Shown piece by piece: positions 42,027-47,044 of a DNA stretch of 64,000 nucleotides. Position numbers and translations under genes: made by a program. The DNA is from Candidatus Poribacteria bacterium (GTDB lineage Bacteria; Poribacteria; WGA-4E; PCPOR2b): positions 1 through 64,000 of the forward strand of contig PYIZ01000049.1 in NCBI GenBank assembly GCA_003635265.1, given 5' to 3'. How positions within the stretch are numbered: position 1 is the first letter of the stretch; each line of letters starts with the position of its first letter. The notes beneath the pieces were generated by a model, which saw only the letters and a list, made by a program, of their open reading frames with translations, did no database searches and was not told the DNA's origin.

Positions 42027-43265
42027 ATGAATTGGCGAACCATTTTTACCCGTCGCATACCACAACCCAGGTTTTATAGAGGCGGTGCCCTGCTTGACTT
42101 TCAACGCTCTAAGCCACACACTGCCCCGCCCACGCCTGACAACCTCCGACGGTCTCCGATGTCCAATCGAGCCAGAGCGAATCGTCGCACAAGTTTGTCG
42201 TTCTTTATCTCCTTGCTACTGCATCTGATAGCGGTCCTTATGGTTAGCATCAATCTGCCGCGATGGTATCGACCACCTCCGCCCCCAGACTCGATTGTTG
42301 CCGAGCTTATCGAGGTCGAATTTCATTCCCAACGCCTTCATCCTGTAGATATCAAAAAGCCGATCTTTCATGCTGACATCCCCAATAAACCTTATGCAAA
42401 TAGTGCACACGCCACACCATTGATGTCCCCAAAGGCTTCCGCAGTGCCGGTAAATCAAGTAGCTTTGCCGGTTCAGTCAACAGCTAAACCGCTGAGTACG
42501 ATGGCCCACTTACTACCCACATCGGACACGCCGTTTGCAGAAGCAGCCGAAGACGATTGGCGCTTGCAGGAATCAATTGGCGAACCGCTGGAAACCGTAG
42601 CCGAAATTCCTCAATCAACATCCACCGAAGTTGAACGTGACCTTTCGCAAATAGACAGACCGCAAACTGACGGCGTCGAGACACCATCGCTTGATCGCGA
42701 TGCACAGATGGGATTGCTTCTTCAGACAATCGCTAGCGGTATCGCGAGCGAGAAAGATTCGCCAACCGTAGATATCGTCTTTTTGCTGGATACCAGTGGG
42801 AGTATGGAAGATAACATTCACGCGGTGGGAAGACATTTAGTTGATATGGTGGAAGTCTTCCAAGCAGAGCAGTTGGATTTTACAATGGCAATGGTGCCGT
42901 TTAAGTATCTGGCACAGCATTTCCATCAACCAACGAAGGACTATCAGAGGTATGAGCGTCTTCTAGAAAACCTCAAATGCAGTGGGGCTGAACGGGCTTA
43001 TAACGCAATCGTTAAATCGATTACGAGGATAAAATTTCGTCCGGAGGCACGACGGCGTTTTATCCTCATCACCGATGCACCGTTTACAGGATCCTATACA
43101 ATTCAAGAGGTATTACAACAATGCTGGGCGGCGGAAATCACATTGGACATAATTGGGGGCGTAACTGATAGAACTGAAGCCGACGATCCACTTAAAGCTG
43201 AACGCGAGCAAAAGGCGCTAGCGAGAAAAACCGGTGGGATGTGGTTTCCGATACCAACTAATTAA
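42027..43265 (+). CDS. VWA-domain protein with TonB-like N-terminus
   Basis: 412 residues from the ATG at 42027 (GAGGAA upstream; the frame opens at 41982). After a basic start there is one transmembrane helix (SLSFFISLLLHLIAVLMVSI) and a Pro-rich PPPPPDSIVAELIEVEF segment as in TonB/energy-transducer N-termini. A Ser/Thr/Pro-rich linker leads to a C-terminal von Willebrand A domain with a complete MIDAS start (DIVFLLDTSGSM) and later Thr/Asp (LITDAP). It is probably an inner-membrane protein with the VWA domain in the periplasm. Its stop codon lies within the target duplication of the following transposon. Confidence 0.8.
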   Translation: MNWRTIFTRRIPQPRFYRGGALLDFQRSKPHTAPPTPDNLRRSPMSNRARANRRTSLSFFISLLLHLIAVLMVSINLPRWYRPPPPPDSIVAELIEVEFHSQRLHPVDIKKPIFHADIPNKPYANSAHATPLMSPKASAVPVNQVALPVQSTAKPLSTMAHLLPTSDTPFAEAAEDDWRLQESIGEPLETVAEIPQSTSTEVERDLSQIDRPQTDGVETPSLDRDAQMGLLLQTIASGIASEKDSPTVDIVFLLDTSGSMEDNIHAVGRHLVDMVEVFQAEQLDFTMAMVPFKYLAQHFHQPTKDYQRYERLLENLKCSGAERAYNAIVKSITRIKFRPEARRRFILITDAPFTGSYTIQEVLQQCWAAEITLDIIGGVTDRTEADDPLKAEREQKALARKTGGMWFPIPTN

Positions 43266-43266
43266 T
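43259..43266. repeat. 8-bp target-site duplication, left copy
   Basis: TAATTAAT directly outside the left inverted repeat. It contains the TAA stop of the VWA gene (43263-43265). Confidence 0.93.
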
Positions 43267-43288
43267 GGGAATTATATACCTTAGTGCC
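43267..43288. repeat. Terminal inverted repeat, left
   Basis: 22 bp starting GGGAATTATATACC and ending TTAGTGCC; identical to the reverse complement of 47015-47036. Confidence 0.95.
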
Positions 43289-43305
43289 GAAGCGTTGAAA
43301 AAAAA

Positions 43306-43647
43306 TTAGGTGTGATTTTCGAGATTAGTTGCTCTGGATTCTATAGCGGAGAATCTAGAGTTTATTTTTCTGACTTCGGTTTCAACGTTTGTAAGTCTTT
43401 TATCAACGTTATCAAGTTTAGATTCAACTTTTTCAAGTCTTGTTTCAACTGCTTCAAGTCTTGTTTCGACTGCTTCGAGTCTTGTTTCGACTGCTTCGAG
43501 TCTTGTTTCAACACTGTTTAGGCTTTTGTTGATTTTGTAAAATTGTGCGTCGAAGTGTTCTATGAGTAAATTGTAAAGTGTAATAAATTCTGGCGGGAGT
43601 TTTTCCGCTTCTTTTAGAAGTGCTATGTTGTTAGCCATTCTACTCAC
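43306..43647 (-). CDS. Heptad-repeat coiled-coil protein (transposon passenger)
   Basis: 113 residues from GTG at 43647, whose GTGA overlaps the preceding gene's stop. An ATG at 43638 (MANNIALL) with AGGTGAG upstream is equally likely. After about 45 residues the protein is an almost pure coiled coil of exact 7-residue repeats (VETRLEA three times, then VETRLEK, VESKLDN, VDKRLTN). In the DNA this is a 21-bp tandem repeat near 43430-43510. No membrane segment. It resembles other small coiled-coil proteins in this element; no known function. Confidence 0.6.
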   Translation of the reverse strand: MSRMANNIALLKEAEKLPPEFITLYNLLIEHFDAQFYKINKSLNSVETRLEAVETRLEAVETRLEAVETRLEKVESKLDNVDKRLTNVETEVRKINSRFSAIESRATNLENHT

Positions 43648-43790
43648 CTCACTTTAGTTTCTTGCGTGTCAGTTTTGGGTTTCACGCCGAAAAGTGCTCT
43701 GGCAACATTTTCGGGTGTATCATGGATTTTGAATAGTTTGTGATACTTGTGCTGTCGTTTCCTCTTGGTAGGTTTCTTTTTGCGTGGCAT
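43644..43790 (-). CDS. Small basic protein, 48 residues (transposon passenger)
   Basis: Reading the minus strand from the ATG at 43790 (AGGAGGATATACC upstream) gives MPRKKKPTKRKRQHKYHKLF followed by KIHDTPENVARALFGVKPK and a polar tail. The stop overlaps the start of the next gene by 4 nt, arguing for real translation. The strongly basic N-terminus suggests nucleic-acid binding (inference); the DTPENVARALFG part may be a short helix motif. Not recognised. Confidence 0.55.
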   Translation of the reverse strand: MPRKKKPTKRKRQHKYHKLFKIHDTPENVARALFGVKPKTDTQETKVR

Positions 43791-43829
43791 GGTATATCCT
43801 CCTTACTTATGTTTTTCGATAATCAGAAG

Positions 43830-44015
43830 TTACCAACAATCTGTGCAGGCTTTATATTCGCATTCTTTAACGCTTTTTAATGACACTTCAAGCACTTTAT
43901 GTGCTATGCGTAACTTGGGGCAGTCCCTATATTTATGATACCTGTCTCCAGTTATAGAGATATAAACTACCTCCGTGATTATATGGTTTTCCCTGTTTTC
44001 TGTAGTAAGCATCAT
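43830..44015 (-). CDS. Small Cys-rich, putative zinc-binding protein (transposon passenger)
   Basis: 61 residues. The body, VVYISITGDRYHKYRDCPKL then VSLKSVKECEYKACTDCW, matches in layout the short zinc-binding module 'VYVT.TG..YH...C..L....I..SL..A...GY..C..C'. That module is usually found at the C-terminus of secreted nucleases and competence-type proteins. Here it is a free-standing protein. AGGAGATA precedes two adjacent ATG codons (44015 and 44012); the second has the better spacing. Confidence 0.6.
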   Translation of the reverse strand: MMLTTENRENHIITEVVYISITGDRYHKYRDCPKLRIAHKVLEVSLKSVKECEYKACTDCW

Positions 44016-44024
44016 TATCTCCTG

Positions 44025-44204
44025 TTATGGGTGTCCTTCAAGGTGCCTGTCTATACGTTGCTCAAGATTTTCAAAACGTCTGTCGAGTCTATTTATATCG
44101 TCTTTAGTTGCTAGACCTCTAGTGAAAGTAAGAACTGCGACGAAAGTGATTATTCCATTTGCAAGGAGTAAACCAAGTGCGATTAAGATTTGTAGATTTG
44201 TCAT
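44025..44204 (-). CDS. Small membrane-anchored coiled-coil protein A (transposon passenger)
   Basis: 59 residues from the ATG at 44204 (GGAGAATATC upstream). One transmembrane helix (ILIALGLLLANGIITFVAVLTF) is followed by a short charged coiled coil that ends DRRFENLEQRIDRHLEGHP. The last 19 residues are nearly the same as the end of the neighbouring protein at 44238-44411 (ERRFENLEKRIDRHLEGHP), so the two genes are tandem duplicates with diverged membrane parts. Confidence 0.65.
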   Translation of the reverse strand: MTNLQILIALGLLLANGIITFVAVLTFTRGLATKDDINRLDRRFENLEQRIDRHLEGHP

Positions 44205-44237
44205 GATATTCTCCTATTGCGTGGCACAATATCTCCT

Positions 44238-44411
44238 TTATGGATGTCCTTCAAGGTGCCTGTCTATACGTTTCTCAAGGTTTTCAAAACGGCGTTCAAG
44301 ACTATCAAAACGCTTGTCTACAGTATCAAATCTGATGCTAAATAATTTCCAGAGTGCTAAGACGATAACGGCTACTTGTCCAATAGCAATTAAAATGCTT
44401 TGGGTATCCAT
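44238..44411 (-). CDS. Small membrane-anchored coiled-coil protein B (transposon passenger)
   Basis: 57 residues from the ATG at 44411, chosen because AGGAGGT lies 6 nt upstream (the frame opens at 44453). N-terminal membrane helix (ILIAIGQVAVIVLALWKLF), then heptads VDKRFDSLERRFENLEKRIDRHLEGHP. It is a paralog of the gene at 44025-44204. The helix-plus-coil layout recalls small holin-associated XhlA-like proteins, but sequence support for that is lacking. Confidence 0.65.
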   Translation of the reverse strand: MDTQSILIAIGQVAVIVLALWKLFSIRFDTVDKRFDSLERRFENLEKRIDRHLEGHP

Positions 44412-44456
44412 GATGCACCTCCTATCAATTTTATTGTGAAGTGACCAATCCAACCT

Positions 44457-45305
44457 TTACCATCCCCCTTTTTTATCCTTGCCGTCCTGTATTGCTTGTA
44501 ATTGGAGTCTGATAAGATTTAATTCACGTTCAATGACTGCGAGCTGTTTAAGGTCATCCTTAATAGATGCAACCCCTATGGTGATGGCTTGATGCCGTTC
44601 CGTGTGTCGCATCCCTTTGCGGTCTAAACGTTGTTCAATGGCAAATAGTCTGTTACTAAGTGCAAGGTCATTCTTTTCATTTTGATCGAATAATATGAGT
44701 GTGGCTTGTTCAAGTGTCTCAAGTCGGGATAAGATTTTTTCAAGCAGCTCAACTGTTACATCTTTCTTGAGAGTTTCCTTCTCAAGTGTTCCAACACGAT
44801 TAACAATATCTTTCAACTGTTTTTCTACACTTATTCGAGTCTGACCTATATCATCGGTAATAGACAATTCTTTGGAAACAATTTCTTCAAACTCAGTCTT
44901 TTGATATTGTGCCTTAGTGTTCTGCCCAAAGCATAGCAAAGAACCTGCGAGAGTAGCACACATAAGGATAATATGTGCCTTGTTTAGCTGTCGATTTCTC
45001 AATGCGTTTGATAGTAGGATAGCAGTAAAGAGTAGAAAGAAGCCCATAGAGATAACGGCAAAAATTATGATAATGCCATTAGTTCTATTATCAAGTGATT
45101 GGCTGAATTGAGTTTGTAGTCGATTTTCTGATTCACGGATTTTTTCGTTTAACCTGAGTTCAGTTTCGACAATATCCGTCTGAATAACAGATACTTGAGC
45201 TTTAACAATAGCTGTGATTTTTCGTAAATCTTCTTCGGTAAGTTCTGAAAAAGCTGTATTGGTAAACACTATCAAAGTTACGGCTACAGTGCAAAGTAAT
45301 TTCAC
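44457..45305 (-). CDS. Exported membrane protein with coiled coils, 282 residues (transposon passenger)
   Basis: A signal peptide (MKLLCTVAVTLIVFTNTAFS) is followed by a coiled-coil segment (about 25-80), two transmembrane helices (GIIIIFAVISMGFFLLFTAILL and AHIILMCATLAGSLLCFG, about 84-135) and a long C-terminal coiled coil (about 145-275). The C-terminus ends in a charged DGKDKKGGW tail. No enzyme motif is visible. It is the largest passenger, and the layout suggests a membrane scaffold or receptor-like protein (inference). It lies 12 bases downstream of the gene at 45318-45578. Confidence 0.65.
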   Translation of the reverse strand: MKLLCTVAVTLIVFTNTAFSELTEEDLRKITAIVKAQVSVIQTDIVETELRLNEKIRESENRLQTQFSQSLDNRTNGIIIIFAVISMGFFLLFTAILLSNALRNRQLNKAHIILMCATLAGSLLCFGQNTKAQYQKTEFEEIVSKELSITDDIGQTRISVEKQLKDIVNRVGTLEKETLKKDVTVELLEKILSRLETLEQATLILFDQNEKNDLALSNRLFAIEQRLDRKGMRHTERHQAITIGVASIKDDLKQLAVIERELNLIRLQLQAIQDGKDKKGGW

Positions 45306-45317
45306 AGATGACCTCCT

Positions 45318-45578
45318 CTAATGATTGTTTTTACCATTGATAAAGACACGCATCATACCTTCAAGTCTTGCAATGCCTTCTTCTAGTCGTGATAGCCTAT
45401 CCTCTACCCTATCAAAGCGTTCATCCACTTTGTCAAAGCGTTGGTCTACTTTGTCAAAGCGTTTATCTATCTTAGCTTCGAGTTTATCATGAGTTTTACT
45501 GTGTATCTGCCAGATTGTAGTGATTATAACTACTGTGGCGAGTATAATCGGGCCTACGTCTCCTAGCCATTCTTGCAT
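45318..45578 (-). CDS. Membrane-anchored heptad-repeat protein (transposon passenger)
   Basis: 86 residues: one N-terminal membrane helix (GPIILATVVIITTIWQI) and then exact heptads IDKRFDKVDQRFDKVDERF, VEDRLSRLEEGIARLEGMM. It starts 14 bases after the transposase stop with AGGTGAAT upstream, so it is expressed from the same transcript. Similar in plan to the two 57-59-residue proteins of this element. Confidence 0.65.
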   Translation of the reverse strand: MQEWLGDVGPIILATVVIITTIWQIHSKTHDKLEAKIDKRFDKVDQRFDKVDERFDRVEDRLSRLEEGIARLEGMMRVFINGKNNH

Positions 45579-45592
45579 GATAATTCACCTCT

Positions 45593-46495
45593 TCAGACTT
45601 CTGCGATTAGGTCTTGATACCGTAATCTTTTTCCGACGCTACCCTTAACGATTATTGCCATCCGTGTGATAGTGTCTAGTGCCTTGCTGTTGTATCTCTC
45701 CTGAAATTCCACAATATACCGTTGAAGGTGTTTTCTACTCATTTTGTGGTAGACGCCCTTATAACCTCGTTTGAGTATCGCCCAAAACGATTCTATGCCA
45801 TTCGTGTGAATCTGGTCATTAACATATTCACCGATTGAATGCCTAACGGATTCATGCTTGCGTGGCATCCCTATATATGCCTTTGCTTCGTCGGTGTAAA
45901 CCGTTGCATCTTGAGTGGTATTCTCTACTACAAACTCTTGCAGTGTGGCTTTCTTAGTATCTTCTGCTACTTCTGCATACACTTGATTCGTTTCTCTATG
46001 CTTGACACCAACGACGGGGATTTTACCGACTGTGCCACGTCCAGCGTGGAGCTTCTTATCAGCGTGTTTGTTACCTTCTTTCCCACCGATATAGGTTTCA
46101 TCAATTTCCACCTCTCCACCAAAGACACTTTTATTCGTTTTCCACGCCTCTCGGATTCGGTGTAGCATATACCACGCTGTTTTCTGTGTAATACCTAGGT
46201 CTCTATGTAACTGCATACTCGATACACCTTTCGGATGAGTTGTCACTAGGTATATCACTATTACCCACTTCTGATAGCCTATATTGCTAGCGTGCATAAT
46301 GGAGTTAGTCTTAACTGAAAATCGTTTATCACAGTCACGACAACGATAAGGCATGGTAGCATGAGCAGCGTGGGTATTAACGTTGTTACTGTCACAATAC
46401 GCACACCGTATTCCATGTTCCCACCTGTTTTCCACAAACCACTTTTCAGCTGTCTCGTCATCAGGGAACCTCTCAAATAATTCTCCAAGATTCAT
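45593..46495 (-). CDS. IS1595-family (ISXO2-like) transposase
   Basis: 300 residues. The N-terminal zinc ribbon CAYCDSNN...YRCRDCDKRF (Cys31, 34, 52, 55) and a helix-turn-helix (VSSMQLHRDLGITQKTAWYMLHRIR) precede the catalytic core. The core has EIDETYIGGK (Asp132), VYTDEAKAY (Asp202) and NGIESFWAILKRG (Glu235, Lys242), the DDE+K arrangement of this family. Length is normal and no frameshift is seen, so it should be active on the 22-bp ends. It is the second gene of the element's operon, unusual in that passengers both precede and follow it. Confidence 0.93.
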   Translation of the reverse strand: MNLGELFERFPDDETAEKWFVENRWEHGIRCAYCDSNNVNTHAAHATMPYRCRDCDKRFSVKTNSIMHASNIGYQKWVIVIYLVTTHPKGVSSMQLHRDLGITQKTAWYMLHRIREAWKTNKSVFGGEVEIDETYIGGKEGNKHADKKLHAGRGTVGKIPVVGVKHRETNQVYAEVAEDTKKATLQEFVVENTTQDATVYTDEAKAYIGMPRKHESVRHSIGEYVNDQIHTNGIESFWAILKRGYKGVYHKMSRKHLQRYIVEFQERYNSKALDTITRMAIIVKGSVGKRLRYQDLIAEV

Positions 46496-46637
46496 GGGGA
46501 TTCTCCCTTCAAAATTATCAGATTTTATGGCACTATTCTACCATAAATAACCGAAGATTGCAAGGGAAAAATCACCCGAAACGTAGTCATAGCAAGGGTT
46601 TGAGACGATTTTGGGTTTTGTGGAAAATACTAAAAAT

Positions 46638-46883
46638 CTACTCATTGTCAGTGGCAATATCGGTTTTTCTCTCAAGGTTGTGCAATCGTCTACGAGTGTT
46701 ATTCATGAAATCGTCGTATAATTCACTTCGTGAATCCAAATCCTCCTTTAACCGATTTATACTGTTATTCATAACGGTAATATTATGCTCAACTGATTCA
46801 AGTCTTGACTCTATAGAATTAAGTCTTGGGACAATAGAATCGTGGAGAAGTTGAAGTTGGGGGTCGGTAAACTTGACTGACAT
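46638..46883 (-). CDS. Coiled-coil protein, first gene of the transposon operon
   Basis: 81 residues, AGGAGGCGAT directly before the ATG. No membrane helix or signal peptide. Nearly all heptads: IVPRLNSIESRLESVEHNITVMNNSINRLKEDLDSR and onward. It lies between the near-consensus promoter at 46953-46981 and the transposase. Function unknown; it may be a soluble partner of the membrane-anchored coils. Confidence 0.6.
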   Translation of the reverse strand: MSVKFTDPQLQLLHDSIVPRLNSIESRLESVEHNITVMNNSINRLKEDLDSRSELYDDFMNNTRRRLHNLERKTDIATDNE

Positions 46884-46952
46884 ATCGCCTCCTATGGCAC
46901 GTTAAAAACCCCTATTATCTTGACTACCATTAAATTGTTGACGCAAAAAGCA

Positions 46953-46981
46953 ATTATAACTATAATGATTATTATAGTCAA
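46953..46981 (-). promoter_or_regulatory. Sigma70-type promoter of the transposon operon with embedded palindrome
   Basis: On the minus strand: TTGACT (46976-46981), 17-bp spacer, TATAAT (46953-46958). The spacer region carries a perfect inverted repeat ACTATAAT-GATT-ATTATAGT (46959-46978), a candidate operator. It is located 34 bases inside the right end, reading into the operon. Confidence 0.7.
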
Positions 46982-47014
46982 GTAAAAAAGATAGATTAAC
47001 CGTCAAGACAAGAT

Positions 47015-47036
47015 GGCACTAAGGTATATAATTCCC
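47015..47036. repeat. Terminal inverted repeat, right
   Basis: 22 bp, GGCACTAAGG...ATTCCC, the exact reverse complement of 43267-43288. Confidence 0.95.
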
Positions 47037-47044
47037 TAATTAAT
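47037..47044. repeat. 8-bp target-site duplication, right copy
   Basis: TAATTAAT directly outside the right inverted repeat. It contains the stop of the enolase-superfamily gene (47040-47042, minus strand). Confidence 0.93.

What the first reader, a model, noticed from the sequence alone, without database searches (positions are those of the whole stretch)
43259..47044. Complete IS1595-type transposon carrying eight passenger genes
Seen directly: perfect 22-bp terminal inverted repeats (43267-43288, 47015-47036), a perfect 8-bp duplication TAATTAAT on both sides, one intact DDE+K transposase, and eight same-strand small genes. Known: the IS1595 family makes 8-bp duplications, and members with passenger genes have been described. 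The passenger content here, mostly coiled-coil and membrane-anchored proteins, does not match resistance, methylase or regulator cargo I know of. It could be an undescribed transposon-borne system.
Basis: partly seen in the sequence, partly recalled or inferred. Interest (0 to 1): 0.9.

Follow-up and report, generated by a model that had tools for sequence, protein, structure and literature searches.

The report
Jumping gene with hallmark small protein
A recently inserted bacterial jumping DNA element carries its transposase plus eight small passenger genes, and one of these encodes a tiny undescribed protein that turns up again at the same end of related elements in many bacteria, so it is probably part of the element's machinery and not random luggage.

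Summary
Window 43267-47036 is a complete IS1595-family element: 22/22 inverted repeats, TAATTAAT on both sides, one intact DDE+K transposase, eight small same-strand ORFs. A congener holds the empty site with a single TAATTAAT. Passenger-carrying IS1595 elements ("transporter IS", tIS) are already known.

New here: one passenger, the 48-aa ORF at 43644-43790, belongs to an unnamed family, here called TPEN (motif [D/A][TS]PExxAxA, often after an RGRP AT-hook-like core, purifying selection, no Pfam match). TPEN was found in 10 of 14 transposase-found members of one 100/100-supported transposase clade; its stop lies 28-68 bp from the right end in 12 of 17 elements with both ends. Of 34 TPEN places found by profile alone, 29 have a transposase within 6 kb or a right-end-like sequence. 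The cargo varies: restriction-modification/methylase genes in 5 of the 8 elements whose cargo I scanned, SH3-like proteins in 2, membrane/coiled-coil proteins in the window and a few others.

Most likely TPEN is an accessory DNA-binding factor of the right end (inferred). The membrane coiled-coil genes are variable cargo of unproven function, possibly envelope or defence. They are not one conserved system.

The parts
43259..43266 (.). target-site duplication TAATTAAT (copy 1)
   Evidence: present once in the empty site of congener L259
43267..43288 (.). terminal inverted repeat, 22 bp; right end in the orientation of the transposase
43306..43647 (-). 113-aa coiled-coil ORF with heptad-long (21-bp) tandem repeats; last gene before the right end; start overlaps the TPEN stop by 4 bp
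43644..43790 (-). TPEN: 48-aa basic protein with HDTPENVARALFG motif, hallmark gene of this transposon clade
43830..44015 (-). 61-aa Cys/His-containing ORF, function unknown
   Evidence: phrog_14556, E 3e-4, unknown function
44025..44204 (-). 59-aa transmembrane + coiled-coil ORF; paralogue of the next; homologue in L137 (E 1e-7)
44238..44453 (-). 71-aa transmembrane + coiled-coil ORF; paralogue of the 59-aa ORF (E 2e-13)
44457..45305 (-). 282-aa ORF: signal/TM, coiled coil, TM; N-terminus related to chromosomal membrane proteins of the host phylum
45318..45578 (-). 86-aa transmembrane + coiled-coil ORF with heptad repeats; homologue L233:10245-10481 (E 5e-6)
45593..46495 (-). IS1595-family transposase, 300 aa, zinc ribbon and DDE+K
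46638..46883 (-). 81-aa coiled-coil ORF upstream of the transposase
47015..47036 (.). terminal inverted repeat, 22 bp; left end in the orientation of the transposase
47037..47044 (.). target-site duplication TAATTAAT (copy 2)

Best explanation
A recently inserted, structurally intact IS1595-family transporter IS. Its DDE+K transposase acts on 22-bp ends and makes an 8-bp AT-rich target duplication (insertion shown by the empty site). It belongs to a transposase clade most of whose examined members carry, usually close to the right end, a small basic protein (TPEN) with an AT-hook-like core in many members followed by a short conserved helix (shown by comparison). Inferred: TPEN binds AT-rich DNA at the right end or target and/or contacts the transposase, acting as an accessory or regulatory factor kept with the element while the cargo is exchanged. 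Inferred, weaker: the membrane-anchored and soluble coiled-coil passengers form a membrane-tethered assembly that changes the cell envelope or excludes other mobile DNA, taking the place that restriction-modification genes hold in sister elements.
For: Ends, duplication and transposase; empty site. TPEN in 10 of 14 clade members found through the transposase. Its stop lies 28-68 bp from the right end in 12 of 17 elements with both ends. Of 34 TPEN places found by profile alone, 20 have the transposase within 6 kb, 19 a right-end-like sequence, 29 either; control small ORFs 95 of 2609 for the end criterion. In the most independent part, 16 places from other genomes of L035's phylum, 13 have one or the other. 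dN/dS 0.07-0.5 for pairs with dS below 2. RGRP in 11 of 27 against 0.09 expected by shuffling. AF2 helix at TPEN residues 26-34. Exchanged cargo.
Against: No biochemical evidence. The window's own TPEN lacks RGRP. AT-rich duplications are equally typical of elements without TPEN (0.91 against 0.87 AT), so TPEN is not needed for that preference. TPEN was not found in the elements L036 and L038, nor in L039 (contig ends before a right end) and L043 (no ends found). Five of 34 profile-found TPEN places show neither transposase nor end. The cargo role is a guess; no defence model matches convincingly.
Confidence: 0.72

Rival explanations
1. TPEN is itself cargo: a regulator, antitoxin or immunity protein for neighbouring passenger genes, which happens to ride at the right end.
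For: In L241 the TPEN start overlaps the stop of the upstream methylase/HNH ORF by 4 bp, and in the window its stop overlaps the next ORF: operon-like coupling.
Against: TPEN stays while the cargo changes: R-M, methylases, SH3-like proteins, coiled coils, and mostly keeps its place next to the end.
Confidence: 0.2
2. The seven non-TPEN passengers are hitchhikers from the host gene pool with no joint function.
For: The 282-aa N-terminus has relatives in 36 of 84 phylum genomes, the window's own included, in varied contexts. Tandem paralogues 59/71 aa suggest local duplication.
Against: All ORFs are open and colinear. Coiled-coil ORFs are about 3-4 times denser inside elements than in flanks by a home-made proxy, on small numbers. 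L035 and L227 carry a comparable class of membrane/coiled-coil plus secreted proteins.
Confidence: 0.35
3. The membrane coiled-coil genes are a phage-defence or superinfection-exclusion module.
For: Sister elements carry restriction-modification genes, and at least 6 of 36 assigned chromosomal relatives of the 282-aa protein lie downstream of type ISP/Eco57I R-M genes.
Against: No convincing PADLOC or PHROG match beyond coiled-coil similarity. The chromosomal relatives also sit by respiratory-complex and other genes.
Confidence: 0.2
4. The conserved TPEN stretch is a DNA-level feature of the right end (binding sites), not a protein.
For: It lies close to the inverted repeat in 12 of 17 elements.
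Against: Synonymous changes far exceed replacement changes. In the window and L035 whole ORFs separate it from the end.
Confidence: 0.04

Closest known systems
IS1595 family of insertion sequences (NF033547, PF12762)
   Same: transposase family, DDE+K, N-terminal zinc ribbon, 8-bp target duplication (family features from PMC8101967, passages read)
   Different: 3.77 kb with eight passengers; the members that PMC8101967 describes usually have a single transposase gene
Transporter IS (tIS), e.g. ISNha5 of the IS1595 family with transcription regulators (PMC11891212, passage read, citing Siguier 2009, which I have not seen)
   Same: passenger genes not needed for transposition, within one pair of IS ends
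   Different: hallmark protein TPEN and membrane coiled-coil cargo; subgroup could not be compared with ISfinder
AT-hook proteins (RGRP core, recalled)
   Same: 15 of 43 TPEN proteins hold RGRP
   Different: the window's TPEN does not; binding untested
Mobile restriction-modification systems
   Same: sister elements L032, L034, L232, L241, L250 carry R-M/methylase genes
   Different: none was found in the window element

Membership tests
IS1595 family | transposase above the family cut-off | tested here: met
   NF033547 187 bits, cut-off 75
IS1595 family | DDE+K catalytic residues | tested here: met
IS1595 family | N-terminal zinc-binding domain | tested here: met
   Cys 31, 34, 52, 55 conserved in 72, 72, 80, 73 of 81 rows; PF12760 matches only below its cut-off, 20.2 against 25.4 bits
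IS1595 family | 8-bp target duplication and terminal inverted repeats | tested here: met
IS1595 family | named subgroup (ISNha5, ISPna2, ISNwi and others) | not testable with these tools
   no ISfinder sequences held
Transporter IS (tIS) | passenger genes between one pair of IS ends | tested here: met
   eight ORFs between the ends; empty site lacks them
Transporter IS (tIS) | moves as one unit with its passengers | tested here: inconclusive
   insertion with duplication is shown, but only one copy is known
AT-hook proteins | RGRP core (recalled) | tested here: not met
   absent in the window's TPEN; present in 15 of 43 family members
AT-hook proteins | binds AT-rich minor groove | not testable with these tools
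   needs an experiment
Anti-phage defence system | match to a known defence protein family | tested here: not met
   only coiled-coil-type similarity in PADLOC

The most novel reading that the evidence does not exclude
TPEN defines an unrecognised, cross-phylum group of IS1595 transporter elements that encode their own DNA-binding accessory protein at the right end, a fixed two-gene core (transposase + TPEN) around an exchangeable cargo slot; in the window the slot holds an unknown membrane-tethered coiled-coil system, possibly a defence or exclusion module.
Probability: 0.3. Interest if true: 0.68.

Novelty: new variant of a known kind. Interest (0 to 1): 0.5.

Why it matters
Most IS elements are thought to need only a transposase. 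A second, conserved gene at one end of a widespread group would show how a simple IS can become a cargo carrier, would give a marker for finding such elements and their unknown cargo in uncultured bacteria, and is small enough to test directly in a transposition assay.

Tried and rejected
(1) The coiled-coil genes as one conserved system: blastp (E <= 0.01) of the nine products against 13,404 mechanical ORFs of the loci held found clear homologues inside other complete elements only for the transposase and TPEN. The 113-aa protein matches L041 weakly (E 0.005) and a chromosomal relative of the 282-aa protein (L143, E 5e-4); the 86-aa protein matches L233 (near a transposase remnant and TPEN, no ends found) and L177 (E 0.004, near a TPEN remnant); the 59/71-aa proteins match L137; the 61- and 81-aa proteins match nothing. 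(2) TPEN as the cause of AT-rich target choice: elements without TPEN show the same. (3) A specific link of the 282-aa protein family to restriction-modification: seen for at least 6 of 36 assigned loci (8 large neighbours scanned; Eco57I in 7 of 50 neighbours), but other contexts are as common. (4) TPEN in plasmids: one family member gave no match. A cultured host: plasmid relatives of the transposase are all below 60% identity; the best (47%, 85% covered) has no annotated gene under the match, the second is a 40% relative; phage records gave 2 matches of 34-36%. (5) Papers: seven searches on IS1595 passengers, ISNha5, AT-hook/transposase, tIS, sponge/Poribacteria, and IS1595 with R-M/small protein listed nothing that names such a protein; I saw listings and abstract openings, plus passages of PMC11891212 and PMC8101967 only. 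(6) Rows dropped by hand: L071 as a chance end pair, of 25 places other than the two of G087, nine whose match lies in a longer or unrelated-looking ORF (L209, L211, L212, L213, L215, L216, L217, L219, L224), L196 and L199, all places with E above 0.003 were left unexamined in the final count.

Biases. The TPEN profile was built from elements I had read, so the 10 of 14 figure is not independent of it. Of the 34 profile-found places, 14 come from genomes chosen because they hold such a transposase, 4 from the window's phylum, 16 from other genomes of L035's phylum. Tree rows found through TPEN inflate the clade count, and L204 and L243 there are one place. Cargo proteins for one search were picked as the larger ORFs and several already looked like methylases; 9 of the 17 TPEN elements with both ends had no cargo scan. 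My notes call some genomes Poribacteria or sponge-derived; those labels are recalled, not from a call.
Full report
What is there. The window holds a complete element at 43267-47036 (3,770 bp). The 22-bp ends are identical, TAATTAAT flanks both sides, and the transposase is an intact IS1595-family enzyme with conserved D132, D202, E235, K242 and four zinc-ribbon cysteines. Eight ORFs run in the same direction. GC is 0.375-0.42 in the four 750-base bins that lie wholly inside the element and 0.44-0.52 in the bins wholly outside. It sits between two convergent genes and leaves the VWA stop codon unchanged.

It moved. In congener L259 (VWA protein 87% identical) the two neighbouring genes are contiguous with one TAATTAAT at the junction. 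In L260, L261 and L263 they are adjacent without the element, with other letters at the site; in L262 other DNA follows the VWA gene. The own genome, a draft of 53 contigs, showed one copy.

Relatives. Transposase searches gave matches at E <= 1e-20 in 38 of 84 phylum genomes, the own included, 43 loci in other genomes and 9 in viral contigs. Of 83 loci examined, many too short to hold both ends, 38 gave an exact 8-bp duplication with >=16/22 inverted repeats; I dropped L071 as chance, leaving 37 including the window. By mechanical ORF calling (45 aa or more), 36 of these 37 have ORFs beside the transposase; L011 (1,218 bp) has none. L077 and L078 appear to be copies of one element. Passenger-carrying elements are thus the rule among these, in line with the published tIS concept (PMC11891212 passage).

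A recurrent small gene. The 48-aa ORF 43644-43790 shares the motif [D/A][TS]PExxAxA with small ORFs of L003, L032, L033, L034, L035, L037, L040, L041, L087 and the decayed L086. No Pfam family reaches E 0.05 for any of 11 members. I call it TPEN. Elements with both ends and TPEN number 17: window, L003, L032 (a contig that runs from end to end, so no duplication can be seen), L033, L034, L035, L037, L040, L041, L227, L231, L232, L235, L241, L244, L249, L250. In 12 of 17 the TPEN stop lies 28-68 bp from the right end: L003 35, L032 36, L033 49, L034 35, L037 61, L041 61, L227 33, L232 68, L235 65, L241 32, L249 52, L250 28. In the other five it lies further in: window 377, L035 674, L244 185, L231 553 and 1,249 (two TPEN ORFs), and L040, where TPEN runs against the transposase inside the element.

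Independent test. The TPEN profile was run without regard to transposase or ends on the 84 phylum genomes, 16 element-bearing genomes and 301 genomes of L035's phylum (18 with a hit at E <= 0.01; after dropping unrelated-looking matches, G087 and 10 others). In all 34 new places were examined: 20 have a transposase within 6 kb, 19 a right-end-like sequence (<=3 mismatches to 13 bases) within 260 bp downstream, 29 have one or the other. Of the 16 places, 13 do. Among 2,609 control small ORFs from the same loci, 95 pass the end criterion (some of these lie by real ends); in another control 1 of 1,390 ORFs has <=2 mismatches within 150 bp. L242 and L254 fail the end criterion but share sequence up to GCTATAAGCCCC downstream of TPEN and then diverge, as at a variant end. 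L175, L177, L246, L248 and L254 show neither feature.

Tree. In a tree of 81 transposases, all 25 TPEN-labelled rows fall in one 30-row clade with 100/100 support; two of these rows, L204 and L243, are one place. The five unlabelled rows are L036, L038, L039, L043 and L184; L184 is the genome place of the L040 TPEN. Of the 14 clade members first found through the transposase, 10 have TPEN (window, L003, L005/L087, L032, L033, L034, L035, L037, L040, L041). Rows found through TPEN inflate the clade count.

What TPEN looks like. Of 43 sequences 15 hold RGRP, the core of the AT-hook as I recall it; in an alignment of 27, RGRP occurs in 11 against 0.09 expected by shuffling. The window's copy is basic but lacks RGRP. 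For pairs with dS below 2, dN/dS is 0.07-0.5; many other pairs are saturated. So it is a protein under constraint. AlphaFold2 gives a basic extended tail and one helix at 26-34 (mean pLDDT 76, pTM 0.32), a low-information model. L241 is a 1,786-bp element with perfect ends and duplication, TPEN and a methylase/HNH gene in two ORFs, without a transposase match.

Cargo. Pfam scans of ten larger cargo proteins picked from seven sister elements and of the window's nine products: HsdR_N/N6_Mtase and Methylase_S in L032, D12 methylase and NotI in L034, N6_Mtase in L232, N6_N4_Mtase in L250 and in L241 (there with HNH), bacterial SH3 below its cut-off in L033 and L035; only coiled-coil-type or sub-threshold similarity for the window's passengers. 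Nine of the 17 TPEN elements were not scanned. L035 and L227, two elements of one genome, each hold a secreted SH3-like protein (by eye for L227), a membrane protein with repeated coiled-coil units and TPEN, the nearest match to the window's class. By a home-made coiled-coil proxy on mechanical, partly overlapping ORFs, 14 such ORFs lie in 145 kb inside 45 elements and 9 in 381 kb of flanks; without the window 0.071 against 0.024 per kb; 8 of 45 elements have at least one.

Window cargo. The 59- and 71-aa proteins are paralogues (E 2e-13), and the 59-aa one has a homologue in L137 that shares the C-terminal RID-HLEGH stretch. The 86-aa protein resembles L233:10245-10481, near a TPEN and a transposase remnant. 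The 113-aa and 86-aa genes contain 21-bp tandem repeats, one coiled-coil heptad each, so stalk length could change by slippage without losing register (inference). The first ~90 residues of the 282-aa protein match a family found in 36 of 84 phylum genomes, the window's own included; of 36 assigned places among 40 fetched, at least 6 lie downstream of type ISP or Eco57I methylases, and 6 of 50 scanned neighbours are NADH-dehydrogenase-like.

Targets. Duplications are AT-rich: 0.87 in 16 TPEN elements against 0.42 in 1-kb flanks, and 0.91 against 0.57 in 29 without TPEN, L077/L078 counted twice. The preference belongs to the transposase group at large.

Conclusion. The element is a new member of IS1595 tIS; the transposase + TPEN core around an exchangeable slot is the new part. 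Shown: structure, insertion, TPEN conservation and usual position. Inferred: DNA binding, accessory role, envelope or defence function of the cargo. The host phylum is not named by the tools and I do not name it.

Noticed in passing
L174:6236-6455 (own genome, contig 53): A second TPEN-like ORF followed by a right-end sequence with no mismatch in 13 bases and no transposase match: probably a remnant of another such element in the window's genome.
   Followed up: partly
L105, L107, L109, L110, L119, L120: Signal-peptide/coiled-coil/TM genes related to the 282-aa cargo protein lie downstream of type ISP or Eco57I restriction-modification genes in the host phylum.
   Followed up: partly
L045, L048, L075, L079, L081: In more distant elements the gene right after the transposase begins with, or is, a basic stretch plus a TPEN-like motif (e.g. 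IEPIKASSEDVVKAI in L079); possibly the same module fused to cargo. Seen by eye; the profile scores it weakly or not at all (L081 E 4).
   Followed up: no
L241 (element of 1,786 bp): Element with perfect ends and duplication, TPEN and a methylase/HNH gene in two ORFs, but no transposase match.
   Followed up: partly
L009, L011, L012, L016, L023: A second group of IS1595 elements in the same phylum with ends like CGCAATAAGTAGTTTTGGGATT, with and without cargo.
   Followed up: no
window 43393-43512 and 45412-45469: 21-bp tandem repeats in coiled-coil genes, one heptad each, able to change stalk length by slippage.
   Followed up: no
L231: Two TPEN ORFs in one apparent element, suggesting nested or tandem insertions.
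   Followed up: no
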